This document shows, in pieces, positions 6,629 through 40,349 of a DNA stretch of 64,000 bases. The notes under the pieces were generated by a model that was not told the origin of the DNA, ran no database searches, and saw nothing but the letters and a program-made list of their open reading frames with translations. The number at the start of each line of letters is the position of its first letter. Position 1 is the stretch's first letter. The DNA is from Saccharibacillus sacchari DSM 19268 (GTDB lineage Bacteria; Bacillota; Bacilli; Paenibacillales; Paenibacillaceae). The DNA lies in contig NZ_KK073875.1 in the NCBI RefSeq assembly GCF_000585395.1, forward strand, positions 3,819,307-3,883,306, given 5' to 3'. The position numbers and the translations under genes were made by a program.

Positions 6629-8710
6629 ATGACGTATACGTTCAAGGAGTATCAGCAACCGGAAATCCTGCGCAACCATTTGAATCTGGGAGGCATCAAT
6701 CCGGAAGGCGAGCAAATCGACGTCACCAGTTTGTACATCGAACGGGGCGGCAAGCCGTACATCCCGGTTATGGGCGAGTTTCATTATTCCAGATGTAATC
6801 GCAACGACTGGCACGACGAGCTGTGTAAAATGAAAGCCGGCGGAATCAATCTGATATCAACCTATGTATTCTGGATCTATCACGAAGAAATCGAAGACGT
6901 CTTCGACTTTTCGGGCGATAACGATCTGCGTGCTTTTATTCAAGAATGCGAAAAAGTCGATCTGGACGTCGTGATCCGAATCGGTCCGTGGGCGCACGGC
7001 GAATGCCGAAACGGCGGGTTCCCTGATTGGCTGCTGGAGAAACCGTTCGAGCTTCGCGACAACAATCCGGCCTACCTGGCGCAAGTGCGTACGCTGTACA
7101 CGAACATTTTCGAACAGGTGCAAGGGCTTTTCTACAAAGATGGAGGAAAGATCATCGCCGTTCAGTTGGAAAATGAGCTGACAGATCGGGCCGACCACCT
7201 GGCGAAGTTAAAAGAAATCGCGATCGAATGCGGAATCATCGCTCCGATCTATACCGTGACCGGATGGAATGCGGTAGAAGGTGCTCAGATCCCGGTGGAT
7301 GAAGTGCTTCCGGTGTTCGGCGGGTATTGCGAAGCACCTTGGGAAGATCATACGAACCTGCTGCCGCCGTCTCCTCATTATTTTTTTACCGGCCTACGCA
7401 ACGACACCGGCATCGGGGCGGACCTGCTTCCTCAAGCGATCGAAACGGATTCGCAGTGGCGTCTGCCGTACGAACGGTATCCTTTTGCAACGTGTGAGCT
7501 GGGCAGCGGGATACAAGTCACGCATCATCGCAGACCGTGGATCAAGCCGATGGACATTTACAGCCTCTCGCTCGTGAAGATCGGTGACGGCAATAACCTG
7601 ATCGGTTATTATATGTATCACGGCGGCACGAATCAGATCGGCAAGTTGTCGACGTTCCAGGAATCGAAAGCTACCGGCTATCCGAACGATTATCCAATTC
7701 TGTCGTATGATTTTCAATGCGCGTTGTCCGAATACGGAGAAGTGCGGGAACAATATCGACTGCTGAATCTTCTGCATTTATTCGTTCAGGATTTTCAGGA
7801 AACGCTTGCACCGATGACGCGGGTAGAAGCTGCGCAATCGGTGGCTAGGGAGGATACGACTTCTTTGCGGTATGCGATGCGTACGGACGGAGATCGCGGG
7901 TTCGTATTCGTGAATCATTATCAACGGCTGACCGAGCTTGCGGATGTGCAAGAGGTGGTGATCGATACGGGGAGCATCGTATTTCCGAACATCGATGTGC
8001 GCGGCGAAGTCAGTTTCTTGATGCCGTTTCGTATGGAGCTGCCGGGCGCGGTTCTCGATTATGCGACGGCTCAACCTTTGTGTATCGCAGGCAATACGTA
8101 TTTCTTCGCGCAAATTCCCGGAATCAAGCCTGAATATCAATTCGGCGACGGGCAAAAGGTTACGGTTCAAGCTGGAATCGATTCGGCTTTTGAGATTAAC
8201 GAGGCGACGATTGTTACGTTGACTTGGGAGCAGGCCAAATATTTGCGCAGATTGGACGGGGAACTGTACGTAGGCGAACAATGCGATTTGTACCGATCGG
8301 GCGGCGAAATTCGTTCTGTTGCGGGCGGTGACGTTCGTTATCTGCATTGGACGGGGAAAAGCTTTGAGCCGCACTCCATTCAACAGTCGTATACGGCACC
8401 TGTGGTCACGTATGAGGAGGTCGCGGAACTTCCTTTTGAACCGAAGCATACCGAAGAATTGCAGATCGGCGGCGAGCGGAACGTTCAATGGCAAAAAATT
8501 TCCGTGACCGGAGCCGAAGGATTCGTCGATATCGAGTATTATGGAGATACGGCTCAGATTTATGCAGACGGGCAACTGGTTGCGGATAGTTATTATTACG
8601 GAGAGACATGGAGAGTACCGGCAAAGCTGTTGCAAGGAAAAGAGTGTTACCTTGCCGTGTCTGAAATGCGGGATGACTTTTACAAAGAGTTCGAGAGCAA
8701 GACCGGCTAA
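6629..8710 (+). CDS. GH35 beta-galactosidase
   Basis: The 693-residue protein carries the GH35 signatures GEFHYSR (residue ~50), TYVFWIYHEE (~74), RIGPWAHGECRNGGFPDWLL (~113) and MYHGGTN (~330). The likely acid/base is within QLENE (~181) and the nucleophile within CELGSG (~290). It has no signal peptide, so it should act in the cytoplasm on imported beta-galactosides such as galactan or arabinogalactan fragments. The C-terminal third is a beta-rich accessory region. An AraC regulator starts 34 bp downstream in the same direction, suggesting a two-gene unit. Confidence 0.93.
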   Translation: MTYTFKEYQQPEILRNHLNLGGINPEGEQIDVTSLYIERGGKPYIPVMGEFHYSRCNRNDWHDELCKMKAGGINLISTYVFWIYHEEIEDVFDFSGDNDLRAFIQECEKVDLDVVIRIGPWAHGECRNGGFPDWLLEKPFELRDNNPAYLAQVRTLYTNIFEQVQGLFYKDGGKIIAVQLENELTDRADHLAKLKEIAIECGIIAPIYTVTGWNAVEGAQIPVDEVLPVFGGYCEAPWEDHTNLLPPSPHYFFTGLRNDTGIGADLLPQAIETDSQWRLPYERYPFATCELGSGIQVTHHRRPWIKPMDIYSLSLVKIGDGNNLIGYYMYHGGTNQIGKLSTFQESKATGYPNDYPILSYDFQCALSEYGEVREQYRLLNLLHLFVQDFQETLAPMTRVEAAQSVAREDTTSLRYAMRTDGDRGFVFVNHYQRLTELADVQEVVIDTGSIVFPNIDVRGEVSFLMPFRMELPGAVLDYATAQPLCIAGNTYFFAQIPGIKPEYQFGDGQKVTVQAGIDSAFEINEATIVTLTWEQAKYLRRLDGELYVGEQCDLYRSGGEIRSVAGGDVRYLHWTGKSFEPHSIQQSYTAPVVTYEEVAELPFEPKHTEELQIGGERNVQWQKISVTGAEGFVDIEYYGDTAQIYADGQLVADSYYYGETWRVPAKLLQGKECYLAVSEMRDDFYKEFESKTG

Positions 8711-12706: not shown

Positions 12707-13735
12707 TCAATCCCCCAACTCCACCATCGCCTTAATTACCCCAGACTCCGGTTTCAACCAACTTTCAAACTCCCCGATCATTTCCGCAAATCTCGCCCGA
12801 TGCGTAATATACCGATCGGTATCGATCACCCCGGCAGCAAGCGCCTCCCGGACCCATGCGAAGTCTTCCGGCGTTGCATTCCGACTTCCCAGAAGCGTCA
12901 ACTCGCGGCTATGAAAATGCGGATCGTTAAATGTAATATCATCCTTAACCAGTCCCACGTACACTATAGAACCGCCATGCGCAACATACCCGAAAGCCTG
13001 CTGCATCGACTGCACGCTACCCGTCGCATCGATCACGATCGGAGCCCCTGCGCCGTCGGTGAGTTCATCCAACTGCTGCTGTACCTCGCCGCCCGCGATA
13101 ATCGTATGCTCTACGCCCGCCCAATCCTTGCAAAAAGCCAACCGCTCTTCATTGATGTCCATCGCAATAACGCGTGCTCCCGCATAACGCGCCAACGCCA
13201 TAATCCCAAGCCCGATCGGCCCCGCTCCCACGACTAACACCGTCTCGCCGCTTCCCTTGATCAATCCCGAACGTCGAAGCCCGTGCGACCCGATTGCAAG
13301 CGGTTCCAATATTGCGGCTTGATCGAGCGTCAGTCCTTTCGCTCCGATCAGATGGCTCACCGGAATCGAAACGCGCTCCCGCATTCCGCCGTCGATATGA
13401 ACTCCGAACACTTGCATGTGTTGGCAGCAGTTCGTTTTTCCCGACCGACAGGCGTAGCAGTTTCCGCAGTGCATGTATGGGATCACGCTCACTGCATCGC
13501 CGACACCCAGCCCTTGCTCATTTTCGCCGATTTGCTCAATGACCCCTGCCAGCTCATGCCCCAGAATTCTCGGATAGCTGAAAAAAGGCTGCTTCCCGCG
13601 AAACGCATGCAGATCCGTTCCGCAGATTCCGATTCGTTTAATGCTGATGATCGCATGCCCGTGTTCCATGACCGGTTCCGGCAAATCCTCTCGCCAGTCC
13701 AGCCGTCCGATTTCTTCGCAAACGATGCCTTTCAT
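12707..13735 (-). CDS. lgoD: LgoD-like L-galactonate 5-dehydrogenase (Zn alcohol dehydrogenase family)
   Basis: The 342-residue medium-chain dehydrogenase has the catalytic zinc ligands in ICGTDLHAF (Cys ~38) and GHELAG (His ~60), a structural zinc cluster CGNCYACRSGKTNCC (~90-105) and the NAD site VVGAGPIGLG (~168). Stretches such as KQPFFSYPR, VIPYMHC, HGGSIVYVGL and LLGSRNATPEDFA match my recollection of E. coli LgoD (YjjN), which oxidises L-galactonate to D-tagaturonate. The match is from memory, not an alignment. The start codon overlaps the stop of the upstream reductase gene as ATGA, and the third gene upstream encodes a lactonase, so the three enzymes are likely to act in sequence. 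Confidence 0.8.
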   Translation of the reverse strand: MKGIVCEEIGRLDWREDLPEPVMEHGHAIISIKRIGICGTDLHAFRGKQPFFSYPRILGHELAGVIEQIGENEQGLGVGDAVSVIPYMHCGNCYACRSGKTNCCQHMQVFGVHIDGGMRERVSIPVSHLIGAKGLTLDQAAILEPLAIGSHGLRRSGLIKGSGETVLVVGAGPIGLGIMALARYAGARVIAMDINEERLAFCKDWAGVEHTIIAGGEVQQQLDELTDGAGAPIVIDATGSVQSMQQAFGYVAHGGSIVYVGLVKDDITFNDPHFHSRELTLLGSRNATPEDFAWVREALAAGVIDTDRYITHRARFAEMIGEFESWLKPESGVIKAMVELGD

Positions 13736-14703
13736 GCCTGATCCCCGCTTCCGCTTGCTAGGTTTGCCGAGTGATTATATACCGGAAGTCCGCTGGACCA
13801 ACTTTGATTATAGATCGGCTTGAGAATCTCCAATACTTCCTCCAATAACGTCTCGTCGATCGGCTCCTCGATCCACTTTGCATTCCGCACGATATTGGCA
13901 GACGAAGCCGTACTCACGAGCGTCGTCGGAATCTGCGCATGACTCGTCGAATATTGCATAGCCAACTTCGCGATGTCCGTACCGGAATTTTCGCAATGAA
14001 GCGCCGCTTGGCGGCATACAGTTTTCACTTCGTCGCCCGCAGGATGCCAAGACGAAGGTTCGCGCGTACTGAGCAGTCCCATCGCCAGAGGCGAGGCATT
14101 CACCAGACCGACCCCTTTTTCCTCCAATAGCGGCACCAGATCCAACAGAGAGTTATCGTTCAGCGCATAATGGCAGTACGACAGGATCGCATCGACCTCG
14201 ATCTGCGGCAGCATCTGCTCGAACAACGATAAAGGAAGTCCGCTGATCCCGCAGAAACGTATTTTTCCTTGCTCCTTCAGCTGATGCAGAGCCGGAACCG
14301 CTTCTTCCAAAATAATCCCCGGATCAACAAATTCAATATCATGCAAAAACAATATATCCAGATAATCCGTCCGAAGACGCTGCAAGCTTTCCTCTACGCT
14401 GCTGAAGATCCGTTTTGCCGTAAAATCGAACTCCGATTCTCCGTAACGCCCCGCTTTCGACGATAACAGGAACTTGTCTCGCGGAATCTGTCCGATCGCT
14501 TGGCCGAGCACCGTTTCCGCGCGCGTCAATCCGTAATAAGGCGACACGTCGATATAGTTGATGCCGCAGTCGATCGCCGCATGTACCGTTCGAATACTCT
14601 CTGAGTCATCCGTCTCCCGAAACACGCCGCCGAGCGAAGAAGCACCGAAGCTTAAAATCGAGACGTCCAGATCGGTTTTGCCCAGTTTGCGCGTTTGCAT
14701 CAT
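13732..14703 (-). CDS. Aldo-keto reductase, plant L-galactose dehydrogenase-like
   Basis: The 323-residue protein has the AKR tetrad: Asp/Tyr in YIDVSPYYG (~50-58), Lys in LLSSKAGRYG (~83) and His in FLHDIEF (~121). The combination of GASSLGGVF, HDIEF, ILSYCHYALND and ASPLAMGLL closely follows plant L-galactose dehydrogenase as I remember it. Bacterial L-fucose dehydrogenases fall in the same group. The predicted reaction is oxidation of L-galactose (or L-fucose) to its lactone with NAD(P). Both flanking genes overlap it by ATGA, so the operon order is lactonase, reductase, LgoD. GGAGG precedes the start. Confidence 0.8.
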   Translation of the reverse strand: MMQTRKLGKTDLDVSILSFGASSLGGVFRETDDSESIRTVHAAIDCGINYIDVSPYYGLTRAETVLGQAIGQIPRDKFLLSSKAGRYGESEFDFTAKRIFSSVEESLQRLRTDYLDILFLHDIEFVDPGIILEEAVPALHQLKEQGKIRFCGISGLPLSLFEQMLPQIEVDAILSYCHYALNDNSLLDLVPLLEEKGVGLVNASPLAMGLLSTREPSSWHPAGDEVKTVCRQAALHCENSGTDIAKLAMQYSTSHAQIPTTLVSTASSANIVRNAKWIEEPIDETLLEEVLEILKPIYNQSWSSGLPVYNHSANLASGSGDQA

Positions 14704-15566
14704 GAAATACCTCCGTTATTCAAGTAAAATGTTTTGGCGTTTTCTCCGAATAGCAAGACTTTCTCCCGATCGCCCCATTCCGCGGGAAGCGCATGTAAGA
14801 TGATATCCATGACCTGATCGTATTCCGCAGCCAACAGACACACTGGCCAATCGCTTCCGAACATGACTCTCTGCGGCCCGAACGCTTGCAGCACATGGCG
14901 CACATAAGGAACGAAGTCGTCGACGTTCCAGCCTGACGGATTCGCTTCAGTCACCATCCCGGAGACTTTGCAATATAGACCCGGGTAATCGGCAAAAGCA
15001 TTCAAATGATCCGCCCAAGCTTCAAAATGCTCTTGCTCGCTAGATTCTCCGCTTTGCGCAATGCGAGGCTTGCCGAGATGATCCAATACTCCGCGGAGGT
15101 TCGGAACCTTTTCCAACAAACGTAACGTCACTTCCATCTGAGGCGCCGTCAGCAGCAGATCGATTGGCACCTGTTCGTCGGCATATCCCCGCAGTGCTTC
15201 GACGAATGCCGGCTCCAAAATTCGCGAAGCATCGGGCATATCCTGAATCATCAGGCGAAAGCCGCGGAATTTGGGATTGCGGCGGAATCGTTCGTAATGA
15301 AGACGATGATCACCGTCGAACAAGTCGATCCAGCCCACGACCCCGAGGATCGAAGGCGTATGGTCGGCTAGCGACAAGATATATTCGGTCTCTTCCAGAG
15401 TCGGCGCTGATTGAACCAGAATACTTCCGTCCAACTTGTGCGCATGCAGCAGCGGTTCCAGATCTTGCGGCAAAAAGTCCCGATACAAAACCGGAAGCTC
15501 CGGCGTGATCCACCCATAATCTCCCCGTCCTATGTTCCAATAATGCTGATGAGCATCGATACGCAT
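14700..15566 (-). CDS. Amidohydrolase-family sugar lactonase
   Basis: The 288-residue COG3618-type metal hydrolase begins MRIDAHQHYW, the HxH metal site, and ends with FGSDWPVCLL, which carries the conserved Asp. Members include L-fuconolactonase, L-rhamnonolactonase and galactarolactone hydrolases. In this operon the likely substrate is the lactone made by the adjoining reductase. ATG 15566 is chosen over 15587 because AAAGGAG lies just upstream of it. It is the first gene of the operon. A weak -10 TACAAT is seen at 15598-15593 on the minus strand. Confidence 0.82.
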   Translation of the reverse strand: MRIDAHQHYWNIGRGDYGWITPELPVLYRDFLPQDLEPLLHAHKLDGSILVQSAPTLEETEYILSLADHTPSILGVVGWIDLFDGDHRLHYERFRRNPKFRGFRLMIQDMPDASRILEPAFVEALRGYADEQVPIDLLLTAPQMEVTLRLLEKVPNLRGVLDHLGKPRIAQSGESSEQEHFEAWADHLNAFADYPGLYCKVSGMVTEANPSGWNVDDFVPYVRHVLQAFGPQRVMFGSDWPVCLLAAEYDQVMDIILHALPAEWGDREKVLLFGENAKTFYLNNGGIS

Positions 15567-15660
15567 ACGGCAGCCCACTCCTTTCATGCCCTATTGTATC
15601 TAATGAAAAAAAGATTGAATATCATCGCTCCTTGCATATTTGTCGCTTTTTTTGATATTT

Positions 15661-15674
15661 TGTAAGCGTAATCT
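15661..15674. promoter_or_regulatory. Perfect cre (CcpA) site
   Basis: TGTAAGCGTAATCT matches the cre consensus TGNAANCGNWNNCW at every fixed position. It lies 33 bp ahead of the AraC start and about 95 bp from the divergent lactonase start, so it could impose glucose repression on the regulator or on both transcripts. Confidence 0.7.
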
Positions 15675-15706
15675 ATTTTATCGAAAAAGGAAAGGAACGG
15701 TGCTGC

Positions 15707-16576
15707 ATGAAGCCTTTGCGCAAACCTTTTGCCGGCGATCCTCTTTTCCCGCTTGAACTGTCTTACCGCACGATGAAAAAGCCGATCGACGAGCTGCCGG
15801 ACCATCTGCATGAACGGTATGAGATCGTATTCGTGCATAGCGGTCAAGGGGTGTTCTTTATCGACGATGCCTGGTACGAGAAAAAAGCAGGCGATTTGTT
15901 TCTGATTCCCGGTAACACCATCCATCGATCACTGCCTCATGACGAAGATCCGGTTGTGTCGTCTGTGCTATTTTTCGCGCCGCGTCTGCTGCATACGGAG
16001 TCCGTAGACGGTGCTTACCATGCGCTGCTCTGCTTCGATCGGGCGCGTAAACACAAAACATACCGCCTGGAGCTGCCCGATTTGTTAGTTACTGAAGTGG
16101 AAGCCGCGTTCAAAGCGATTCATTGGGAGCTTGATCAGCAGCAGCTCGGCAATCGCGAAGCAGTCAAGCTGATCGCGAGTACGCTGCTGCTGCGGATCAA
16201 CCGTCTGATCTACGCGCAGCAGCCGGATCACACCGAAGAAACTGCAAGCATTCCGTTTTGGATGAAAGAAGCGTTGCGCGAGATCGACGAACATCCCGAG
16301 CGTTCCAACGGATTATCTGCGCTAGCCGCCAAAGCCTGCATCTCTCCGCCGCATTTTTCCCGCGTGTTCAAGCAATTGACCGCCATGAACGTGACCCAAT
16401 ACGTCAATGCCAAGCGGATCGTGCGGGCAAAAGAACTGCTGGCGTCTACCGACCGCAGCGTCGCGGAGATCGCCCAAGGCTGCGGATACGAGACGACGGC
16501 GCATTTTCATCGGATATTCAAGCGTATAGCCGGTACGACGCCGAGCGGCTATCGGAAAACTGTACCTGAACAATAA
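15707..16576 (+). CDS. AraC-family regulator of the L-galactose operon
   Basis: The 289-residue protein has an N-terminal cupin (HLHERYEIVFVHSGQGVFFI and AGDLFLIPGNTIHRS) and the C-terminal AraC double HTH (LSALAAKACISPPHFSRVFK and VAEIAQGCGYETTAHFHRIF). It is divergent from the lactonase-reductase-LgoD operon with only 140 bp between the start codons. It is therefore the natural candidate activator of that operon. The substrate-binding ligand is unknown. The cre site in its leader suggests it is repressed while glucose is present. Confidence 0.9.
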   Translation: MKPLRKPFAGDPLFPLELSYRTMKKPIDELPDHLHERYEIVFVHSGQGVFFIDDAWYEKKAGDLFLIPGNTIHRSLPHDEDPVVSSVLFFAPRLLHTESVDGAYHALLCFDRARKHKTYRLELPDLLVTEVEAAFKAIHWELDQQQLGNREAVKLIASTLLLRINRLIYAQQPDHTEETASIPFWMKEALREIDEHPERSNGLSALAAKACISPPHFSRVFKQLTAMNVTQYVNAKRIVRAKELLASTDRSVAEIAQGCGYETTAHFHRIFKRIAGTTPSGYRKTVPEQ

Positions 16577-17281: not shown

Positions 17282-18409
17282 TTAGGATACTTCTTCAGCT
17301 TCCAGTATAGCCAACATCAACGGAGCAACACCCATCGGCGTATCGCTGACAACCTCTTCCGAGATGTAATAATCATACGAACCGTTGCGGTCGATGCTCA
17401 GCCCGGCGCCGTGGCAGATTCCGTTCAGATGAAGCCCCTCTTCGTCTTCCGTGACCAGATGTTGCAAAATCCCTTCGTACCCGCGCCGCATCGGCTCTGT
17501 AAAGTTGTTTTCCAGATAACCTAACCGCAGCCCTTTCGCCATCGCGTACACGAACATGCACGAACCCGAAGCCTCCAGATAGTTGCCTTTGCGTTCTCCT
17601 TGATCCAATACCTGATACCATAATCCGCTGTCCGCATCCTGAACTTTGACCAGTGCGCCGATCATTCGTTGGAAAATACCGATGAGCGTACCCCGTTGAC
17701 GATGCGTGATCGGAACATGATCCAGCACGTCCACGACCGCCATCGCGTACCATCCCATCGCCCGGCTCCAAAAATGCGAAGACAACCCGGTCGATGAATC
17801 GGCCCATTCCTGTTCCTTCGACTCGTCCCAACCGTGATAAAGCAGCCCCGTGCGCGGATCGCGGGTACGGCGTTCGATTAACAGCAGCTGATGTACCGCC
17901 TCGTCAATGAGATCGGGACGGTCGAACGTTTTGCCGTACTCGGCCAGAAACGGCGAAGCCATGTACAGACCGTCGAGCCACATCTGAAACGGATATACTT
18001 TTTTATGCCAAAATCCGCCTTCGGAAGTTCGAGGTTGGGAAATAAGCTGGGCGGCGAGCATATGCGCGGCTTCGGCGTACAGATTCTCTCCCGTCGCCCG
18101 ATGCAGAGCAAATAAGTTTTTTCCTTGATTGATCTGATCCAGATTATATTCTTCCAACCGATACGTGCGAATACGTCCGTCTTCCTGAACAAACGCATCC
18201 ATATGTCGCTTCATGAACGCGACATATTCCGGTACATCCAGCTGCTCGCCTGCCCGCGCAAGCGCCATAAGCTGCATACCCGGAACATAGGCCCAGCGCT
18301 CCATGACCCAGGGGTGCTCGCCTTTATCGTTGCACTGCGACAGCAGTTGATCGGCGAATCGGCGTACCCGTTGCGCGCCTGCTGCATGGATTGTTTTTAA
18401 CATGCTCAT
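17282..18409 (-). CDS. GH105 unsaturated rhamnogalacturonyl hydrolase
   Basis: The 375-residue (alpha/alpha)6-barrel protein matches YteR/YesR. MWLDGLYMASPF carries the catalytic Asp (~residue 143) and SHFWSRAMGWYAMAVVD a conserved aromatic site (~210). It removes the unsaturated uronic acid left at the end of oligosaccharides by pectate or rhamnogalacturonan lyases. No signal peptide is present, so it works in the cytoplasm on imported fragments. GGAGG is 10 bp ahead of the ATG, which overlaps the stop of the esterase gene by 4 bases. It is the last gene of a three-gene operon. Confidence 0.9.
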   Translation of the reverse strand: MSMLKTIHAAGAQRVRRFADQLLSQCNDKGEHPWVMERWAYVPGMQLMALARAGEQLDVPEYVAFMKRHMDAFVQEDGRIRTYRLEEYNLDQINQGKNLFALHRATGENLYAEAAHMLAAQLISQPRTSEGGFWHKKVYPFQMWLDGLYMASPFLAEYGKTFDRPDLIDEAVHQLLLIERRTRDPRTGLLYHGWDESKEQEWADSSTGLSSHFWSRAMGWYAMAVVDVLDHVPITHRQRGTLIGIFQRMIGALVKVQDADSGLWYQVLDQGERKGNYLEASGSCMFVYAMAKGLRLGYLENNFTEPMRRGYEGILQHLVTEDEEGLHLNGICHGAGLSIDRNGSYDYYISEEVVSDTPMGVAPLMLAILEAEEVS

Positions 18410-19518
18410 TTTTGCCGTACCTCCTTGGTGGTTGTCATCAATTGTCGCTTTAACCAGGCAAAAGCCGGATCGCCATGAATCTCATGCCCACCTGTAAAAA
18501 TGTCCGCTTCCACGCCGTCGAGGCGACCTGCTGCCTGGAAAATGGTGTGCAGCCGATCCAGCGCTTCGTGAACGCCGGCAGGCCCGAATAGATGATCGTT
18601 CACACCCGACTCCACAAACAGACCACGTGGCGCAATCAGGCCGAGAAGATCCGGCATTTCCGCTTCAAGCAAAATACCGGGAATATAATTATCCAAGCAG
18701 TGATTACGCGATAGAATACTTTTGGCAAACGTGTTAGTGTAACCGCTTACGACTGTACAACCAATACGGCGATCCAACGCAGCGGTGAATCCGGCGACAA
18801 GACCCCCACCTGAAATGCCCATAATCCCGACCTTATCGGAATCGAATTCATGGCGCGCCTGCACATAATCCAATGCACGCATCGTCTCATAGATCCGGTA
18901 GCCTGCCATCGTTTGCCCGACCATAAGCAGCGCCGAAGATAAGCGGAAACACGAATTTTTGCCCGGATCTTCGGCTGCCAAAGCCAAGTCCTCTTTCAAG
19001 CGGCGATCGCCGAAGCCCAACAGCTCGGGCGCGGCGACGACAAATCCTTGCCGCACGAGCGACAACGCAAAATCTTTATGCAGGCCGGGCTCGCTTTCCC
19101 TTGCCGATCCGTCCGGATGCAGCCCTACGATCTCGCGGCTTCCGTAACCGTGACCGTGGATCGCGAGTACGACAGGACGCGAAATGGAAGCCGCGGAATG
19201 CCCAGAGTCGTCACTCGTATTGAAATTTGGCACAGCACTATCGGGAAGTAGCAGATATAGCGGCATGCGCAGACCTTCATACGTCGTAATTTCGATGCGT
19301 TCCCGCACGTAACCGTCGCATCGCGTGTGCTCCATCAGCACCGGGTTCAATGCGGCGGGAACAGACGGGAACTCGCCCAGACGTTCGCGGAATCGCTGAC
19401 GAAGCTCCGTTTGCCATTGATCAAAAGGGATATCCGCTTCCCATTCCGAACGCCGGGGCGCCGATTCGCTTAGCGTATGGATAAACTGTTCTAACGTGTT
19501 CGGTTTATTTGGGTTCAT
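18406..19518 (-). CDS. Alpha/beta-hydrolase, acetylesterase-like
   Basis: The 370-residue protein has the nucleophile elbow GISGGG (~245), an Asp in SGVNDHLF (~305) and a His in TGGHEIHGD (~350). It resembles the dienelactone hydrolase/acetyl-xylan-esterase-like family seen in carbohydrate operons. A length near 370 residues with an N-terminal helical extension is common in this group. Being between pectin methylesterase and GH105 suggests removal of acetyl groups from pectin or rhamnogalacturonan fragments in the cytoplasm. The exact ester is not determined by sequence. Confidence 0.8.
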   Translation of the reverse strand: MNPNKPNTLEQFIHTLSESAPRRSEWEADIPFDQWQTELRQRFRERLGEFPSVPAALNPVLMEHTRCDGYVRERIEITTYEGLRMPLYLLLPDSAVPNFNTSDDSGHSAASISRPVVLAIHGHGYGSREIVGLHPDGSARESEPGLHKDFALSLVRQGFVVAAPELLGFGDRRLKEDLALAAEDPGKNSCFRLSSALLMVGQTMAGYRIYETMRALDYVQARHEFDSDKVGIMGISGGGLVAGFTAALDRRIGCTVVSGYTNTFAKSILSRNHCLDNYIPGILLEAEMPDLLGLIAPRGLFVESGVNDHLFGPAGVHEALDRLHTIFQAAGRLDGVEADIFTGGHEIHGDPAFAWLKRQLMTTTKEVRQK

Positions 19519-19519
19519 C

Positions 19520-20410
19520 TCAATATCCCTCCGGATGCCAGCCGCCCAGAATCTCGATCACCCGATAGCCGGCTGCCTCGTCGGCACTTAACTGACGAGA
19601 CCAAACTGCACGTGCATTAGGATTCGCTCCGGGTCCGCTGCTATCGAATTCCTCATAGCGGCTGGTCGATTCCCGATCCGGCTGTCCCCAATTGTGCCAG
19701 CCTTCGGGGATAATCGAGGCGTCGATCGTTGTCCGGATCCAAGCGACATGTGCGAAGGAGCGCCAAGGGCGTCCCAGATAGACGTCGCCGACGCCTTCCC
19801 CGCCGGTGATTGTACAATCGAGAAATACATAGCCGCACTTTTCGTCTTCGGGCGTGGAGGCTGCGGTTATATAACCGCGAGAGCGCTTGTTATGCAACCG
19901 GCAGCGGTCAAACACCGCAGTCGCCGCGCCGAAGATATAATCGACATCGCCTTCAATGTAACAGTCATCGTAGTATTGTTTGCCTTTTCCCGTATACAAG
20001 GTGTCCTGGTCGCCCAGCAATCGTACGCGTCGGAATACCGCATACCCGGCGTCGACGAACGCAGCAACGGCTTGGCCCGTACCAGGTCCGGAAGCGTTGC
20101 GGATCGTCACGTTTTCGGCGGTGAAATGTTCGGACAAGACGTTGAGCGTACCGCTGCGGAACGTGCCGAGCGGCTGTCCTGCATCATCCAGCGTATGCGC
20201 GTTGTCCGACCAGCTAATGATCGTGGAAGCGGCATCGTCACCCAGCAGCAGGATCGGCGGTGCATCGGCGCGAACCGTTACCTTTTCCTCGTATACCCCG
20301 GGTTTGATCCGCATCGTGACTGATTCGGTAGAACCGATCGGAATATAGTCGAGCGCCGACTGAAGCGTGGTGAAATCGGCATCGGACTGCTTAGAAACGG
20401 TAATGAGCAT
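19520..20410 (-). CDS. Pectin methylesterase (CE8)
   Basis: The 296-residue right-handed beta-helix protein has the CE8 signatures: LLGDQDTLYTG with the first catalytic Asp (~150), DYIFGAATAVFD with the second (~175), and YLGRPWRSFA with the substrate-binding Arg (~235). It hydrolyses methyl esters of polygalacturonate. There is no signal peptide, so it probably de-esterifies imported oligogalacturonides. ATG 20410 follows AAGGAG. A longer frame upstream runs antisense through the AraC gene and is rejected. The next gene starts 2 bp before the end of its stop codon region. Confidence 0.9.
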   Translation of the reverse strand: MLITVSKQSDADFTTLQSALDYIPIGSTESVTMRIKPGVYEEKVTVRADAPPILLLGDDAASTIISWSDNAHTLDDAGQPLGTFRSGTLNVLSEHFTAENVTIRNASGPGTGQAVAAFVDAGYAVFRRVRLLGDQDTLYTGKGKQYYDDCYIEGDVDYIFGAATAVFDRCRLHNKRSRGYITAASTPEDEKCGYVFLDCTITGGEGVGDVYLGRPWRSFAHVAWIRTTIDASIIPEGWHNWGQPDRESTSRYEEFDSSGPGANPNARAVWSRQLSADEAAGYRVIEILGGWHPEGY

Positions 20411-20500
20411 CAAGAGACGGTCTCCTTTCCCGGATTGGCGGGTATGTTCTATAATGAAGTCAAAGTTCAAATAGGTCGGTGCGAGAAAAGGAAGTGACGT

Positions 20501-21367
20501 ATGTCCAGTATCAGCAGCCCCAATCCCAAGCATGTTCTGGAAGACGGCCGATTCAGTATTCAACATATGAAGCGCAAAGGCATAACGGCCATGCCGCGTT
20601 CCCACAGTCACGAGCAGATCGAATTGTATTTCCTGTGCGAAGGCGAGCGCGTCTACTTCGTCGATGATCGCGTCGTCACCGTGCATAAAGGCGAGCTGAT
20701 CCTGATCCGCCCGAATCAGCTTCACGCGACGGCAAGCTCCGAGATCGCGGAGTTCGAGCGGATTTTGGTCAATTACGATCCACTGCTTCTTCCGGCTGCT
20801 CTGCAAAGCGAAAACAAATGGTTCCATAACAAGGGCTACCGGATGTTTCGGCTGACGTTGCGGGAGCAAGACGAGGTCAAGCAGCTGCTTAACCGAATAC
20901 TGGACGAATGTCTGGCAAGCCGCGACTATTACGAGAGCTGCGCGGTGGCTTTGTTTACGGAATTGATGATTCTGCTTCAACGTTCCGAAGGCGTGCAGCT
21001 TCAGCAAAACGGATCGGCCAAGCCGCCGCTGCATGATCTGGTCAACAACGTTGCGGCGCATATCCGCGAACATCATCGGGAAACGCTGACGTTGGAAGAA
21101 ACGGCCGCTCACTTTTTTATCAGTCCTTCGTATTTGAGCCGAGTGTTCCACCGTTTAACCGGGTTCCACTTCCGCGAATATATTTTGCATATCCGAATGC
21201 GGGAAGCCGAGCAGCGGTTGGCCGACTCGGAAGACCGGGTTCAGGAGATTGCTTCAGCCGTCGGATTCGAGCATTTGTCGCATTTCAACAAGACGTTCAA
21301 GAAAGCGACGGGACTGACGCCTCTGCAATACCGGAAGCAGGCGCGATCGCTTCGCCGTTCAGACTGA
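20501..21367 (+). CDS. AraC-family regulator within the pectin locus
   Basis: The 288-residue protein has an N-terminal cupin (HSHEQIELYFLCEGERVYFV and KGELILIRPNQLHATA) and the C-terminal HTH pair (LTLEETAAHFFISPSYLSRV and VQEIASAVGFEHLSHFNKTF). It is divergent from the pectin methylesterase operon, with 90 bp between starts. A -10-like TATAAT lies at 20450-20455 without a good -35. Its last 71 bp overlap the 3' end of the converging GH28 gene, which is an unusually long convergent overlap. Confidence 0.9.
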   Translation: MSSISSPNPKHVLEDGRFSIQHMKRKGITAMPRSHSHEQIELYFLCEGERVYFVDDRVVTVHKGELILIRPNQLHATASSEIAEFERILVNYDPLLLPAALQSENKWFHNKGYRMFRLTLREQDEVKQLLNRILDECLASRDYYESCAVALFTELMILLQRSEGVQLQQNGSAKPPLHDLVNNVAAHIREHHRETLTLEETAAHFFISPSYLSRVFHRLTGFHFREYILHIRMREAEQRLADSEDRVQEIASAVGFEHLSHFNKTFKKATGLTPLQYRKQARSLRRSD

Positions 21368-22751
21368 CGTTCCGGCAGCGATGGATGGTTAACTGAGGAC
21401 GTTCCCGGGTCTGGAGCGCGATATTTTCCAGCTCTATTCCGTCGGCGTGCCGCAGGACGATCCCTTTCTCACTGGTTGCCCGAAGCCCTTCGATACGCAG
21501 ATTATGGAGGGGCATTTCGGGAAGACCGTTCACCAGAAGCGCCGCAGCCGCTCCTACGCACACGACGTCCCGAATGGCGATATCCCGAAATACCGGGGTC
21601 TCTTCCGTTACGGGATACACTTCGTCGTCGCTGCCCTCAGACCCTTCCACGCCCGCATAAAAGAGATGGAACGAGATCGCTTCGTGCACGATGTCCCGCA
21701 TCACGATCCGCTCGATCTCGATATCCTCCACCACGCCGCCGCGTCCGCGCGTGCTTTTGAACCGCAGGCCGATATCCGTTCCGCTGAACAGACAATCGCT
21801 GACGCGCACCCCGCGTACGCCGCCGGACATCTCGCTGCCGATCACGACGCCGCCATGCCCGTGATACACGCTGCAATGCCGGATCGTGATCGACTGGCAG
21901 GGCATTCCCGCACGCCGGCCTGCTTCGTCCTTACCGGATTTTAGGCAAATGGCATCGTCGCCGACATCGAATACGCTATGTTCCACCAGCGCACGGGTGC
22001 ACGATTCGAGATCCAGTCCGTCTCCGTTTTGCGAGTACCAGGGGTTACGGACTTGCACCCCGCGAATGGTGACTTCTTCACAACCCACCGGATGCAAACA
22101 CCAGGCGGGGGAATTTTGAAACGTAGGCCCTTCAAGCAAAATCCGTTGACACGAGCGCAGGCTCACCATGTTCGGACGCAGAAAGGTGCGGGCAGGCAGA
22201 TAATCTTCCGCGCTGGCTGTGGGGTGCGAAATTCCTGCGTGTTCGATATGCTCGGATGTCGACCATAATCGCTCGCGCAATTCCCGGCAGTACGCTTCCC
22301 CGTCCCGGGCTTCAGCGTTGGGCCACCAAATTTCATTTGCCGTATCCACGACGCCGCCGGATTGAACCAACTGCGTCCATTGCGGCTGCGTTGTCTTGAA
22401 ACGCTTGACCGGACGCCAGCCTTCGCCGCCGCCGTCGAAAATTCCGCCGCCGGTAATCGCGATATCTGTCAACTCTGAGCCGTCCAGCGGAGCTTGGCAT
22501 CGCCATTCGGGGCGGCCTTCGAAATGCGAAGGCACCAACGGATACAGCTCAGGATCGGAGTCGAATTGGACAAGAGCGCCGCTTTCTACGCGGAGATTGA
22601 TCCGACTTCGCAGCGTTAGCGGGCCGGTGCGCCATAATCCGGCAGGAATGATTACCGTTCCGCCGCCGGAAGCGGCACAGTCGTCGATAGCGGCTTGCAA
22701 GCCGGACGTGCATAACTCCAATCCGTCTCCAATCGCGCCGTAGTTCAGCAC
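21297..22751 (-). CDS. GH28 polygalacturonase / exo-galacturonosidase, start uncertain
   Basis: The 484-residue beta-helix protein has the GH28 sites: NPWYSQNGDGLDLESC (first Asp), VGDDAICLKSGKD (the Asp pair), GHGGVVIGSEMSGGV and a conserved RFKSTRGRGG. It hydrolyses galacturonic acid polymers, most likely the exo type given the cytoplasmic context. The GTG at 22751 has only a weak ribosome site. The frame is open to 22817, and those upstream residues (GYPLPELPQIPDRSVNV) look like genuine N-terminus. A TAA at 22820-22818 then separates it from an SD-preceded 28-codon frame in the same register. See the finding on this stop. Confidence 0.82.
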   Translation of the reverse strand: MLNYGAIGDGLELCTSGLQAAIDDCAASGGGTVIIPAGLWRTGPLTLRSRINLRVESGALVQFDSDPELYPLVPSHFEGRPEWRCQAPLDGSELTDIAITGGGIFDGGGEGWRPVKRFKTTQPQWTQLVQSGGVVDTANEIWWPNAEARDGEAYCRELRERLWSTSEHIEHAGISHPTASAEDYLPARTFLRPNMVSLRSCQRILLEGPTFQNSPAWCLHPVGCEEVTIRGVQVRNPWYSQNGDGLDLESCTRALVEHSVFDVGDDAICLKSGKDEAGRRAGMPCQSITIRHCSVYHGHGGVVIGSEMSGGVRGVRVSDCLFSGTDIGLRFKSTRGRGGVVEDIEIERIVMRDIVHEAISFHLFYAGVEGSEGSDDEVYPVTEETPVFRDIAIRDVVCVGAAAALLVNGLPEMPLHNLRIEGLRATSEKGIVLRHADGIELENIALQTRERPQLTIHRCRNVSLNGEAIAPASGIAEASVPSLS

Positions 22752-22817
22752 GTTGACGCTTCGATCCGGAATTTGCGGCAGTTCGGGCAGCGGATATCCG
22801 GTGTCGTGCGCCTGGGA

Positions 22818-22904
22818 TTAGTGCTTCAACTGATCCGCTGCATCCCATTCATCAAGATGTTGCGCTTTGCGTTCGGCCTCGTTGCGGGTTCGATATTTAT
22901 TCAT
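22818..22904 (-). CDS. 28-residue leader ORF in frame with GH28
   Basis: ATG 22904 is preceded by a very strong AGGAGGG about 10 bp upstream. The frame reads MNKYRTRNEAERKAQHLDEW followed by DAADQLKH and then TAA. It lies 23 bp after the GH43 stop and is in register with GH28, so it may be a leader peptide or the severed N-terminus of the GH28 enzyme. The sequence is charged and helical, with no signal peptide. No family assignment can be made at this length. Confidence 0.5.
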   Translation of the reverse strand: MNKYRTRNEAERKAQHLDEWDAADQLKH

Positions 22905-22927
22905 CTGCGGAATTCCCTCCTATCCTT

Positions 22928-24508
22928 CTATTCCAAGCCTTCGTAACTGAACCAATCAAAGTCGGCGTGGTTGGAACTGTCTGCTCCGTTCGAGCTGGCA
23001 TATAGTCCGATATAAGCACCCGTAAATCCGCCTGCCGTATCCGTGCTCAGCACTCGGCCGTCGGCATTTCGATGCAGCGGCGTCCATGTGTGCTGTTCAT
23101 TTTCCCGGTAAAAGAAACTGTAGTCCTGCCCGTAAGCTTCGACTTTGAACTGGGTATGCGCGTTGTTCCACGGGATGCTGGCTAACACGGTTTCTTCGCC
23201 GTACAAACGTACCGTCAGCGTTAGAGTCCCTGTTTCGCCTGCGAAACCTTTTTCCCCGGAAGCCATTTCGAATCGGAAATGGTTATCCGCGTTTTGGAAC
23301 AACACCAACCCGGCCGTTTCGTCGACCGTAGCGGGTTCGAACGTCATGTCCGCGGCTGTACGGAACGAAAGGTGCTGCTGTCTGCGTGCGACCAGTGCCG
23401 GATTGGCAAGGTCGCTCAGCTTCTCCGGCTTCAAGCGCAGGCGCAAATGTCCCGGGGCACCCTTCAAGCTCCAAAAGTCGCCTTGCGGCGTGCGCAGGAA
23501 GTTCCACGCCAACGACAACTCGTCTTCATCGAAATCATCGCGAACAGAAAGCAGCGGCCAAAGCGTTTCCGGCAGATCCGGCGCAGTCGATTCGAATTCC
23601 AAGATGCCTTTTCCCGGATTGACGATCGGCCATTCGTTTTCCCACTTTACGGGCGTCAGGAAAGTCTCGCGTCCGAGATTCCGGTAATAACCGCCGCTTG
23701 TCCGCGAGGCTAGGCAGAACATCCACCAATCGCCGTGCTGCGTCTCGACCAATTCGCCGTGGCCTACGTTCACGATCGGGAACTCCCGGCCCAGATGGCG
23801 GTGAGTCAGGATCGGGTTGGCTTTGTTGCCTTCGTAAGGGCCCGTGATCTGTTTGCTGCGCGCAATCGTGATCGCATGGGTATGTCCCGTGCCGCCTTCG
23901 GCAATCAAGACGTAATACCAATCTCCGATTTTATAAATATGCGGGCCTTCTTGGGCATGGCCGACCTTTAGCGCTCCCTGCCAGATGCTGAGCTTGTCGC
24001 CGATCAGCTTGCCCGACTTCAAATCAATCTCTTGCAGCCAGATATCCATATGCTTGGCATATTCCTGACCTTCCGGCGGAACGCGGTTCCCCGTGTAATA
24101 GACTCGACCATCATCATCGAAAAAGAGCGAAGGATCGATACCCGGCGCATCCTCCAGCCAGACCGGGTCCGACCATTCTCCTGCCGGGTCGGTAGCGGTC
24201 ACGTAGAAGTTATGACAGTCCTTGTCATTGTCAACGAAGGTCGTTATCATATAGAACACGCCTTCGTGGTAACGAATTGTCGGTGCCCAGATGCCTCGGG
24301 ACGGCGTGGTCCGATCCAGATTTAACTGGGAAGGGCGATCCAACACATGACCGAGCTGGCGCCAATGAATCAGGTCTTTGCTGTGGAAGATCGGTACGCC
24401 GGGGAAAAATTCGAAGCTCGAAGTAACCAGATAATAATCTTCGCCGACGCGGATCGCCGATGGATCGGGATAAAAGCCGGGCAGAATGGGATTACGGAAC
24501 GTTTTCAA
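22928..24508 (-). CDS. GH43 family glycosidase (beta-xylosidase / arabinofuranosidase type)
   Basis: The 526-residue protein starts with the five-bladed propeller signature NPILPGFYPDPSAIRVGED. The general-base Asp is in this PDPS motif, a second Asp is in DAPGIDPSLFFDDDG (~130) and the acid Glu is in KVGHAQEGPHIYK (~200). The C-terminal ~200 residues form the concanavalin-like GH43 C2 domain. It is predicted to release xylose or arabinose from side chains and lacks a secretion signal. TTG 24508 is chosen because AAGGAGG lies 7 bp upstream. A cre-like site lies in its leader. Confidence 0.9.
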   Translation of the reverse strand: MKTFRNPILPGFYPDPSAIRVGEDYYLVTSSFEFFPGVPIFHSKDLIHWRQLGHVLDRPSQLNLDRTTPSRGIWAPTIRYHEGVFYMITTFVDNDKDCHNFYVTATDPAGEWSDPVWLEDAPGIDPSLFFDDDGRVYYTGNRVPPEGQEYAKHMDIWLQEIDLKSGKLIGDKLSIWQGALKVGHAQEGPHIYKIGDWYYVLIAEGGTGHTHAITIARSKQITGPYEGNKANPILTHRHLGREFPIVNVGHGELVETQHGDWWMFCLASRTSGGYYRNLGRETFLTPVKWENEWPIVNPGKGILEFESTAPDLPETLWPLLSVRDDFDEDELSLAWNFLRTPQGDFWSLKGAPGHLRLRLKPEKLSDLANPALVARRQQHLSFRTAADMTFEPATVDETAGLVLFQNADNHFRFEMASGEKGFAGETGTLTLTVRLYGEETVLASIPWNNAHTQFKVEAYGQDYSFFYRENEQHTWTPLHRNADGRVLSTDTAGGFTGAYIGLYASSNGADSSNHADFDWFSYEGLE

Positions 24509-24533
24509 CGGGATTCCTCCTTCAAAGTGAAAA

Positions 24534-24547
24534 TACAACCGTTTACA
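24534..24547 (-). promoter_or_regulatory. cre-like site upstream of GH43
   Basis: On the minus strand TGTAAACGGTTGTA matches the cre consensus with one deviation (T for C near the end). It lies about 26-39 bp upstream of the TTG start, downstream of a possible -10 TATAAT (24569-24564). It overlaps the 12-bp palindrome TTACATATGTAA at 24543-24554. Confidence 0.5.
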
Positions 24548-26946: not shown

Positions 26947-26960
26947 TGATAGCGCTTACA
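26947..26960. promoter_or_regulatory. cre-like site upstream of the ABC transporter operon
   Basis: TGATAGCGCTTACA matches the cre consensus except for one A-to-T change. It lies 70 bp ahead of the first permease ATG. Confidence 0.55.
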
Positions 26961-35225: not shown

Positions 35226-36050
35226 TCAAATGCGGGTGTTGGATAGGTGTAAATCGATTACCAAAAGGATAGCGATGCTGAGCAGGATCAAGCATCCGGC
35301 TGCGAGATCGGGTTTCGTTAGGCGGAGCGGACGGAAGATCGTTCTTCCCCGCCCGTCGCCGTAGGCCCGCGCTTCGATCGCAAAAGTCAGGTTGTCTGCG
35401 CGGCGAGCGGTGCTGACCAGCAAAGGAACCAGAATCGGGATAAATTCCGTCAGGCGAGAGAACGGATTGCGGTTCGACGGCTCGAATCCTCTGGCCCGGC
35501 GCGCAAGCCGGATGCGTTGGATTTCTTCAAGGATCGTCGGGATGAACCGAATCGCGATCACGATCATTAACGAGAATTGTTCAACGGGAACGCGCAGCTT
35601 GGACAAAGGCTTCAGCAGCGTTTCCAGCCCCTGCGCCAGCACGAGGGGGCGGGTCGTGCCGGTTAACGCGGACGCTGCAAGAATCATCAGCAGGATGCGC
35701 CAAACGATTCGGACTCCTTCCAGGATGCCCTCGACGGTGATATGCAGAAACCCGTACGAAACGAGGAGCGTTTGTCCTTTTCCCAATGTCGTGTGGTACA
35801 GCAGCGTGAGGATCAGAACCGGAAGCAGCGGAAGCAGGCCGCGGAAGTAGAAACCCAGCGGAATTTTCGAAAGGAGCAGAATGATTAAAACAACTACCGT
35901 CGCCGCCGCGTAGCCGCTTCGGCTGTCCATCATCATAATCACAATCATCAGCAGCAATAAGCCGATGATCTTGATGCGCGGATCGAGACGATGCACCGCA
36001 GAGTCCCGTTCGATAAACTGGCCGACGAGCATTCGATCAGAAGCATTCAT
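35226..36050 (-). CDS. ecfT: ECF transporter transmembrane subunit EcfT
   Basis: The 274-residue membrane protein has four or five helices and the two Ala-Arg coupling motifs: RLARRARGFEPSN (~183) and AIEARAYGDGRGR (~225). These contact EcfA1 and EcfA2. It is the last gene of a bioY-ecfA1-ecfA2-ecfT operon; its ATG overlaps the ecfA2 stop as ATGA. It assembles the energy-coupling module that drives uptake through BioY, and in Firmicutes often through other S components as well. Confidence 0.92.
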   Translation of the reverse strand: MNASDRMLVGQFIERDSAVHRLDPRIKIIGLLLLMIVIMMMDSRSGYAAATVVVLIILLLSKIPLGFYFRGLLPLLPVLILTLLYHTTLGKGQTLLVSYGFLHITVEGILEGVRIVWRILLMILAASALTGTTRPLVLAQGLETLLKPLSKLRVPVEQFSLMIVIAIRFIPTILEEIQRIRLARRARGFEPSNRNPFSRLTEFIPILVPLLVSTARRADNLTFAIEARAYGDGRGRTIFRPLRLTKPDLAAGCLILLSIAILLVIDLHLSNTRI

Positions 36051-36952
36051 CGGCCGTTCCTCCTGTTTTCTTTTCGGGCATTCCAGGCTTCTTTTACCTG
36101 ATCCAAGACATCCGCTTCGCCGCAGCTTGAAGGACTTACCGTTCGACCTGACAAATGCTCGGTCAAGCGCAGCAGTTCAATCGCCTCCGGCAGCGGCATT
36201 CCGGACTGGATCAGCAGATCGTTTCGCTGCAAAAACAAATCGTCTGCCGTCTCGTGCGCCAACAAATGTCCTTCATGCAGCAGCGCGACGCGATCCGAAT
36301 ACTCCGCAACATCCTCTATCCGATGCGAAATAAACAACACCGTACGCCGCTCTCCGTGCAAGCCGCCTCGCTGCCAAGCTCGAAGAACACGCAGCAGTTC
36401 GCGTCGGCTGACCGGATCGAGCGCGGCTGTCGGTTCGTCCAGGATCAGCAGCCCGGGATTAGCAATAAGCACGGAAGCAATTGCCAGCCGTCTTTTCTGT
36501 CCGCCGCTGAGCAACAAAGGCGATTGATGCAGAATTTCTTCGCGCAGCCCGAATACCGGCAAGATCGCGCGAATCGCCATCGCGATTTCTTTTGAAGAAT
36601 CCCCTCGCATCCGCAGCGCAAAGCTTAATTCCTTCTCGACAGTAGTCTCGAAGATTTGATGCTCCGGGTATTGAAAAACAAATCCGATCTCCGGCACAAC
36701 GCGAACTCGTCCTTTGCGGTCCCGGGCTATGGGTTCTCCTGCCAGCCTATATTCGCCCGTGAACTCGGGGATCAGGCCTTTGATCAGGCGGACCAACGTA
36801 GACTTTCCTGCCCCGGTCTTTCCGATCAACGAGGTCCAGCTTCCGGGTTCCAGTCTCAGATCGATATGCCGTAACACGGGAGTCCCGCCCAGTTCCACGC
36901 AAATATCCCGAAGTTCCCAACCGCTTTGCCGTGCAATAACGGTCTTTTTCAT
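36047..36952 (-). CDS. ecfA2: ECF transporter ATPase EcfA2
   Basis: The 301-residue ATPase has Walker A GKTGAGKST (~38), Q-loop FVFQYPEHQIF (~90), signature LLSGGQKRRLAIA (~145) and Walker B LLILDEPTAALDP (~168). It lacks nothing obvious of an ABC ATPase. The Q-loop YPEHQIF is typical of the ECF ATPases. ATG 36952 overlaps the ecfA1 stop as ATGA. A second possible ATG lies at 36964 with a less convincing site. It forms a heterodimer with EcfA1. Confidence 0.92.
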   Translation of the reverse strand: MKKTVIARQSGWELRDICVELGGTPVLRHIDLRLEPGSWTSLIGKTGAGKSTLVRLIKGLIPEFTGEYRLAGEPIARDRKGRVRVVPEIGFVFQYPEHQIFETTVEKELSFALRMRGDSSKEIAMAIRAILPVFGLREEILHQSPLLLSGGQKRRLAIASVLIANPGLLILDEPTAALDPVSRRELLRVLRAWQRGGLHGERRTVLFISHRIEDVAEYSDRVALLHEGHLLAHETADDLFLQRNDLLIQSGMPLPEAIELLRLTEHLSGRTVSPSSCGEADVLDQVKEAWNARKENRRNGR

Positions 36953-37749: not shown

Positions 37750-37750
37750 A

Positions 37751-38305: not shown

Positions 38306-38382
38306 GACAGGGTTAACCTCCAGTATTGTTCTTCTTACTATGTAGGCAAGCCGGTTCAAATCTGCTTGCTTCGTGCCTTTGC

Positions 38383-38437
38383 ATTATAGCTTGATTAATT
38401 ATCATTGTAAACCCATATAAAAATTATTGGTTAACAA
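38383..38437 (-). promoter_or_regulatory. bioY promoter with BirA operator
   Basis: The operator TTGTAAACC (38405-38413), 15 bp spacer, GGTTAACAA (38429-38437) matches the bipartite BirA site. The minus-strand -35 TTTACA (38411-38406) lies inside one half-site and the -10 TATAAT (38388-38383) is 17 bp away. Confidence 0.9.
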
Positions 38438-38460
38438 TAGAGACGCAGCCTATAAAAAAT

Positions 38461-38486
38461 AGCCCCTTTCCGTAGAAAGGAGCTCA
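38461..38486 (-). terminator. Terminator of the iron-uptake operon
   Basis: AGCCCCTTTC (38461-38470) pairs with GAAAGGAGCT (38475-38484) with one mismatch. On the minus strand a T tract follows. Confidence 0.7.
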
Positions 38487-38489
38487 TAC

Positions 38490-39551: not shown

Positions 39552-39584
39552 CATCATTTCCCCCTATATGTATGTAAGCTAGAT

Positions 39585-40346
<762 letters not shown>

Positions 40347-40349
40347 CGT

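What the first reader, a model, noticed from the sequence alone, without database searches (positions are those of the whole stretch)
12707..16576. Candidate bacterial L-galactose oxidation cassette in a pectin locus
Three ATGA-coupled genes encode a plant L-galactose dehydrogenase-like reductase, a sugar lactonase and an LgoD-like L-galactonate dehydrogenase, beside an AraC regulator with a perfect cre site. Seen directly: the overlaps, motifs and cre site. Known: LgoD turns L-galactonate into D-tagaturonate. Inferred: together they move L-galactose, found in rhamnogalacturonan II and some mucilages, into the hexuronate pool that pectin also feeds. No dehydratase is present, which argues against a plain L-fucose pathway. 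As a complete three-step module with its own regulator it may be undescribed in this group.
Basis: partly seen in the sequence, partly recalled or inferred. Interest (0 to 1): 0.8.

Follow-up and report, generated by a model that had tools for sequence, protein, structure and literature searches.

The report
L-galactose breakdown operon, Bacillota version
Three adjoining bacterial genes most likely turn the rare sugar L-galactose into a compound that the pectin-breakdown pathway can burn; the same route is already known from other bacterial phyla, so this looks like a new member of a known kind rather than a new pathway.

Summary
The three overlapping genes and the divergent AraC gene are real. 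The reductase is a clear relative of L-galactose dehydrogenases (E 1e-99 to a PDB chain of that name; catalytic tetrad kept). The zinc dehydrogenase is 43% identical to E. coli LgoD, more than to RspB or Tdh. The amidohydrolase resembles L-fuconolactonases. Best reading: L-galactose -> L-galactonolactone -> L-galactonate -> D-tagaturonate. Comparative support: the AKR occurs in 139 of 245 sampled genomes of the family; of 60 neighbourhoods read, 41 hold all three genes, 23 a tagaturonate reductase-like gene (16 between lactonase and AKR, but 4 without the dehydrogenase) and 18 a GH95 gene. The window's genome has uxaB, a uxaA-family gene and a uronate isomerase in one cluster elsewhere. Corrections: the route is not new (Phocaeicola vulgatus, Luteolibacter). 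The 'perfect' cre fits only a loose consensus and is shared by few relatives. The pectin neighbourhood is not a conserved partner (GH105 nearby in 3 of 60). Two called start codons are probably too far upstream. My paper searches showed no report of it in Paenibacillus-type bacteria, so it is a useful annotation and a well-posed test, not a surprise. Nothing was assayed.

The parts
12707..13735 (-). LgoD-like zinc dehydrogenase; proposed L-galactonate 5-dehydrogenase giving D-tagaturonate
   Evidence: 43% identity to E. coli LgoD (145 of 341 positions); 35.6% RspB, 28.0% Tdh, 36.6% P. plebeius operon ADH; GICGTD, GHE, LEP and structural-zinc Cys motif
13732..14703 (-). L-galactose dehydrogenase-like aldo/keto reductase
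   Evidence: the five best PDB sequences are all called L-galactose dehydrogenase: 9w6y E 9.7e-100, 7ezi 2e-90, 7lh6 3.7e-89 and two more; tetrad Asp/Tyr/Lys/His kept; next AKR of the genome only at E 3.6e-29
14700..15587 (-). COG3618-type (name recalled) amidohydrolase; proposed L-galactonolactonase; likely true start at 15566
   Evidence: 4dlf E 1.6e-45; NCBIfam L-fucono-1,5-lactonase 242 bits, below its 400-bit cut-off; DxHxH, LDHLG and GSDWP motifs
15707..16576 (+). AraC-family regulator with cupin sensor domain, divergent from the operon
   Evidence: Pfam HTH_18, AraC_binding; among the genes searched for, a divergent AraC relative is the next one upstream in 40 of 60 neighbourhoods
15660..15674 (+). 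cre-like sequence, loose consensus only, conserved in few relatives

Best explanation
A sugar-inducible L-galactose catabolic operon. The AKR oxidises L-galactose at C1 with NAD(P)+ to L-galactonolactone, the amidohydrolase opens the lactone to L-galactonate, and the LgoD-like zinc dehydrogenase oxidises C5 to D-tagaturonate. D-tagaturonate is then reduced and dehydrated by UxaB/UxaA-type enzymes encoded elsewhere in this genome, joining galacturonate breakdown at KDG. The divergent AraC protein probably activates the operon on sensing the sugar or an intermediate. Shown here: gene structure, homology, motifs, conservation and synteny. Inferred: all activities, the cofactor, the inducer and the source glycan.
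For: AKR: the five best PDB sequences are L-galactose dehydrogenases, with a large gap to the next AKR (E 4.8e-87 vs 3.6e-34); in a tree it groups with the PDB and Bacteroidota relatives, apart from the 7 (of 18 other matches in the genome) genome AKRs included (98/99; long branches warned of). ADH: 43% to LgoD, and the relatives' ADHs join LgoD (95/95; long branches). Synteny over 60 neighbourhoods picked by hand across the 141 hits (listing, recount): 41 have LAC and ADH with the AKR; 23 a tagaturonate reductase-like gene, 16 of them between LAC and AKR; 21 also an altronate/galactarate dehydratase-like gene (a 27%-identity match in L098 dropped); 18 a GH95 gene (26% and 28% matches in L046, L053 dropped); 36 have uxaB or GH95. 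Representatives by models: uxaB of L044 and L082 over the tagaturonate reductase cut-off; L044 dehydratase domains and three GH95s (L072, L080, L099). Own genome: uxaB over cut-off, a galactarate/altronate dehydratase-family gene and a uronate isomerase in the same cluster, KDPG aldolase, one GH95. Named examples: Paenibacillus cellulositrophicus (AraC, amidohydrolase, AKR, ADH, ABC transporter, GH95), Catenovulum adriaticum (mannitol-DH family, ADH, amidohydrolase, AKR, altronate dehydratase family nearby), Phocaeicola plebeius (AKR, amidohydrolase, MFS-like, ADH, uxaB, uxaA), Bacteroides finegoldii (AKR, amidohydrolase, FucP, ADH).
Against: No assay. The lactonase is nearest to L-fuconolactonases and only 26.5% identical to the P. 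plebeius operon amidohydrolase, so its lactone could be L-fucono- or both. 19 of 60 neighbourhoods lack LAC, ADH or both (four of the 60 stretches were cut short by contig ends or choice). Four genus-mates, counted in the 23 with uxaB, have uxaB-uxaA-AKR (AKR 52-55%) with no LAC or ADH beside it and no ADH match above about 33% identity in the genome, so the AKR need not always serve this route. GH95 enzymes can be fucosidases; the Thr found in the 16 neighbouring GH95 ORFs read (15 of the 18 loci) and in the own copy fits an L-galactosidase but is not diagnostic. No sugar importer or GH95 lies in the cassette of this genome. KDG kinase was not checked. No altronate-specific model was reached for the uxaA-family genes.
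Confidence: 0.86

Rival explanations
1. The cassette serves L-fucose (or D-arabinose): AKR as L-fucose dehydrogenase, amidohydrolase as L-fuconolactonase, dehydrogenase acting on L-fuconate.
For: Lactonase resembles L-fuconolactonases; GH95, near 18 of 60, is a family with many fucosidases.
Against: C5 oxidation of L-fuconate gives a 6-deoxy product that the tagaturonate enzymes beside the cassette in 23 of 60 loci should not use (inference from pathway chemistry). The genome has an L-fucose isomerase-family gene elsewhere. Luteolibacter LguA, of the same AKR family, showed no activity on L-fucose or D-arabinose.
Confidence: 0.07
2. A dual L-glucose/L-galactose route as in Luteolibacter LG18.
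For: LguA and LguD take both sugar series.
Against: Needs a 5-keto-L-gluconate 4-epimerase, not looked for here. L-galactose is still the far better LguA substrate (40-fold kcat/Km).
Confidence: 0.03
3. A general aldose or uronate detoxification or redox module with no dedicated sugar.
For: Some relatives carry the AKR without partners (L049, L052, L068).
Against: Fixed gene order, a divergent AraC in 40 of 60, and recurrent uxaB/uxaA or GH95 partners in 36 of 60.
Confidence: 0.04

Closest known systems
L-galactose pathway of Phocaeicola (Bacteroides) vulgatus, BVU_0219/0220/0222 (Hobbs et al. 2014, recalled; not held; BVU_0219 and BVU_0222 cited in PMC12632266)
   Same: Same three reactions, same enzyme superfamilies (lactonase recalled); product D-tagaturonate.
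   Different: Compared only by proxy, with the P. plebeius operon: AKR 47% identical, lactonase 26.5%, dehydrogenase 36.6%. The dehydrogenase here is LgoD-like (43%) and the lactonase L-fuconolactonase-like; AraC regulator, no symporter in the operon.
lgu cluster of Luteolibacter sp. LG18 (PMC12632266; abstract, introduction, methods, results as far as LguF, and discussion read)
   Same: L-galactose dehydrogenase AKR, L-galactonate dehydrogenase, tagaturonate reductase, altronate dehydratase, divergent regulator.
   Different: The cluster genes named there include no lactonase; also handles L-glucose through a separate epimerase. Sequences not compared with the window here.
E. coli L-galactonate catabolism, LgoD
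   Same: LgoD, annotated L-galactonate oxidoreductase, is 43% identical.
   Different: In E. coli lgoD sits beside lgoR and lgoT, without AKR or lactonase.
Plant L-galactose dehydrogenase
   Same: Same AKR family and catalytic tetrad (that 7ezi is from rice is recalled).
   Different: Serves vitamin C synthesis in plants.

Membership tests
Bacterial L-galactose -> D-tagaturonate pathway | L-galactose dehydrogenase-type AKR | tested here: met
Bacterial L-galactose -> D-tagaturonate pathway | lactonase of the amidohydrolase superfamily in the operon | tested here: met
   sequence nearer fuconolactonases, 26.5% to the P. plebeius operon protein
Bacterial L-galactose -> D-tagaturonate pathway | L-galactonate 5-dehydrogenase of the zinc MDR family | tested here: met
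   by sequence only: 43% to LgoD; tree with long branches
Bacterial L-galactose -> D-tagaturonate pathway | route onward from D-tagaturonate (UxaB, UxaA, KDG kinase, KDPG aldolase) in the genome | tested here: inconclusive
   UxaB and KDPG aldolase over cut-off; dehydratase only as galactarate/altronate family, below the galactarate cut-off; KDG kinase not checked
Bacterial L-galactose -> D-tagaturonate pathway | growth on L-galactose and enzyme activities | not testable with these tools
   needs bench work
L-fucono-1,5-lactonase (NCBIfam NF052480) | score over the curated cut-off | tested here: not met
   242 bits vs 400
Non-phosphorylating L-fucose pathway | L-fuconate dehydratase in the operon | tested here: not met
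   the operon has three genes, none a dehydratase; the rest of the genome was not searched for one
CcpA cre site | match to TGWAANCGNTNWCA (consensus recalled) | tested here: not met
   absent at 15660 even with one mismatch; loose pattern met

The most novel reading that the evidence does not exclude
A lineage-wide L-galactose pathway of Paenibacillus-type bacteria, assembled from other parts than the Bacteroidota one: a shared L-galactose dehydrogenase joined to an LgoD-type dehydrogenase and a fuconolactonase-type lactonase, with GH95 alpha-L-galactosidases as suppliers. If so, L-galactose from plant walls is a common nutrient for these bacteria, and many 'GH95 fucosidases' and 'fuconolactonases' beside these genes are misnamed.
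Probability: 0.45. Interest if true: 0.42.

Novelty: new member of a known kind. Interest (0 to 1): 0.27.

Why it matters
It lets three genes with generic names ('aldo/keto reductase', 'amidohydrolase family protein', 'zinc-binding alcohol dehydrogenase' in the Paenibacillus record) be given a function in many genomes, and predicts a testable growth trait, L-galactose use, across a large bacterial family. It also offers context for sorting GH95 enzymes into L-galactosidases and fucosidases.

Tried and rejected
Considered and rejected: L-fucose as the main substrate; a strong CcpA site; a dedicated pectin or RG-II module (the pectin genes at 17282-24538 are neighbours here, with GH105 nearby in 3 of 60 relatives). 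The GH95 Thr/His position was tried as a discriminator and is not diagnostic. P. vulgatus was not among the 80 loci kept of 554 relatives, so P. plebeius served as proxy. The lactonase is hard to find with this query in Bacteroidota: 17 of 80 loci at E 1e-3. The first, ORF-based synteny missed genes; the tblastn version replaces it. In one search the query named UXAA was most likely a uxaB, so its UXAA/UXAB labels are not used. Papers: in the listings of searches (25 of 174 shown; 12 of 21; 15 of 3,516) and 66 I saw no title or abstract start that reports this pathway in Paenibacillus. I checked passages of PMC5385347, PMC5069468 and PMC5516027: they concern galacturonate, agar and 3,6-anhydro-L-galactose, not L-galactose itself. 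Subscription papers are mostly not held.
Full report
What is there. On the minus strand, 15587-12707 hold three overlapping genes, an amidohydrolase (LAC), an aldo/keto reductase (AKR) and a zinc dehydrogenase (ADH); an AraC-family gene runs the other way from 15707. Both junctions read ATGA. The LAC start at 15587 precedes its likely ribosome site (AAAGGAG); the internal ATG at 15566 begins MRIDAHQHYW, where the match to 4dlf also begins, and the AKR opens ATGATG with the three homologues aligned starting at the second Met.

The cre claim is weak. The 15660-15674 sequence fits WTGNAANCGNWNNCW, which occurs 6 times in the window against 1.18 expected (0 of 100 shuffles reach 6), but it does not fit TGWAANCGNTNWCA even with one mismatch; the one exact hit to that stricter pattern is at 26947-26960. 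Of the 32 relatives whose AraC-LAC gap could be read, 2 had a loose match (L041, L093) and 2 a strict one (L057, L093); L041, the nearest relative, has the same letters as the window. Both consensus patterns are recalled.

Enzymes. AKR: the five best PDB sequences are all named L-galactose dehydrogenase; the sixth is some 53 orders of magnitude weaker. The tetrad reported for spinach (Asp57, Tyr62, Lys90, His127; passage of review PMC10069634) has its counterparts in invariant columns of a four-sequence alignment. In the genome the next of 18 further AKR matches is at E 3.6e-29. ADH: 43% identical to E. coli LgoD, against 35.6% RspB, 28.0% Tdh and at most 32.7% for the four other genome MDRs compared; in the tree it lies with LgoD (95/95), with the warning that LgoD and several references are long branches. 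LAC: best PDB match 4dlf, named Amidohydrolase 2 there and recalled to be an L-fuconolactonase; the NCBIfam L-fucono-1,5-lactonase model gives 242 bits, below its cut-off of 400.

Distribution. The AKR at E <= 1e-70 is in 139 of 245 genomes sampled from the window's family, the own one included, and in 6 of 398 sampled from its phylum, all 6 in that family.

Neighbourhoods. From the 141 hits I took 60 by hand across the identity range (58 genomes, the window's own left out; 56 stretches of 15 kb, four shorter). By tblastn (recounted) 41 of 60 have both LAC and ADH, 11 ADH only, 1 LAC only, 7 neither. A divergent AraC relative is the next searched gene upstream in 40. A tagaturonate reductase-like gene is present in 23, in 16 of them between LAC and AKR; 21 of the 23 also have an altronate/galactarate dehydratase-like gene (one 27% match elsewhere dropped). 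GH95 is near in 18 (two matches at 26 and 28% dropped); 36 of 60 have uxaB or GH95; GH105 is near in 3. Model searches of a few representatives agree. Tagaturonate reductase inside the operon is the strongest sign that D-tagaturonate is the product. Against: 19 of 60 lack one or both partners nearby, and four genus-mates, counted in the 23, have uxaB-uxaA-AKR but no ADH match above about 33% identity in the genome; their genomes were not searched for LAC.

This genome. uxaB at 4101645 is over its cut-off and is followed by a galactarate/altronate dehydratase-family gene and a uronate isomerase. KDPG aldolase, one GH95, three GH29-family matches and an L-fucose isomerase-family gene are elsewhere. 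So the product can probably be used, and L-fucose probably has its own route.

Other phyla. The single genome-contig scan kept 80 loci of 554 relatives, all 80 Bacteroidota by their titles; the query was led by 7lh6, which favours that phylum. 69 of 80 also hold an ADH relative; LAC is found in 17 of 80 at E 1e-3. Phocaeicola plebeius, whose protein is identical to 7lh6 over the 309 residues compared, has AKR, amidohydrolase, an MFS-like transporter, ADH, uxaB and uxaA in a row (transporter named by eye). The same trio appears in Catenovulum adriaticum from algae and in Bacteroides finegoldii, and in P. cellulositrophicus together with an ABC transporter and GH95.

What is known. PMC12632266 (abstract, introduction, methods, results as far as LguF, and discussion read) describes the Luteolibacter L-glucose/L-galactose route through D-tagaturonate and cites P. 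vulgatus BVU_0219 and BVU_0222 as L-galactose and L-galactonate dehydrogenase; it notes Bacillota sequences in the LguA cluster. The original P. vulgatus paper is not held; its lactonase BVU_0220 is recalled. LguA showed no activity on L-fucose or D-arabinose. A GH95 enzyme can be L-galactose-specific (PMC4491172, passages), though the Thr/His position once proposed as the switch is not diagnostic (PMC10063614, passages). The 16 neighbouring GH95 ORFs read (from 15 of the 18 loci) and the own one carry Thr there, the position being taken from the motif around the two catalytic Asn.

Verdict. An L-galactose operon, confidence 0.86, common in its family and a new member of a known kind. What may be new is its description in Bacillota and the different make-up of two of its three enzymes; the listings of paper searches, several of them capped, showed no report of it there.

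Noticed in passing
window 26947-26960: The only exact match to the strict cre consensus TGWAANCGNTNWCA in the window, just before a run of ABC transporter-like genes starting at 27031.
   Followed up: no
window 17282-24538: Pectin/hemicellulose cluster on the minus strand: GH105-type (Pfam Glyco_hydro_88), esterase-like, pectinesterase, GH28, GH43, with an AraC-type gene at 20501 on the plus strand.
   Followed up: partly
window 6629-8710: GH35 gene overlapped by an AraC-type ORF called from 8541; the latter's true start is probably further in.
   Followed up: no
window 35226-41444: ECF-type and vitamin B12/F420-like ABC transporter genes on the minus strand.
   Followed up: no
L082, L083, L084, L085: Four genus-mates carry uxaB-uxaA-AKR (AKR 52-55%) beside a 678-aa gene that is GH42 in L082, without lactonase or LgoD-like dehydrogenase nearby; what this AKR does there is unexplained.
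   Followed up: partly
L196 (genome G081): A genus-mate without the AKR at E 1e-70 keeps a 72% identical ADH whose match holds one internal TGA, perhaps a decaying remnant of the operon.
   Followed up: no
L067, L090, L092: Three relatives have AKR and ADH without lactonase or AraC nearby; in L067 the gene before the AKR is radical SAM, CofH/MqnC-like.
   Followed up: no
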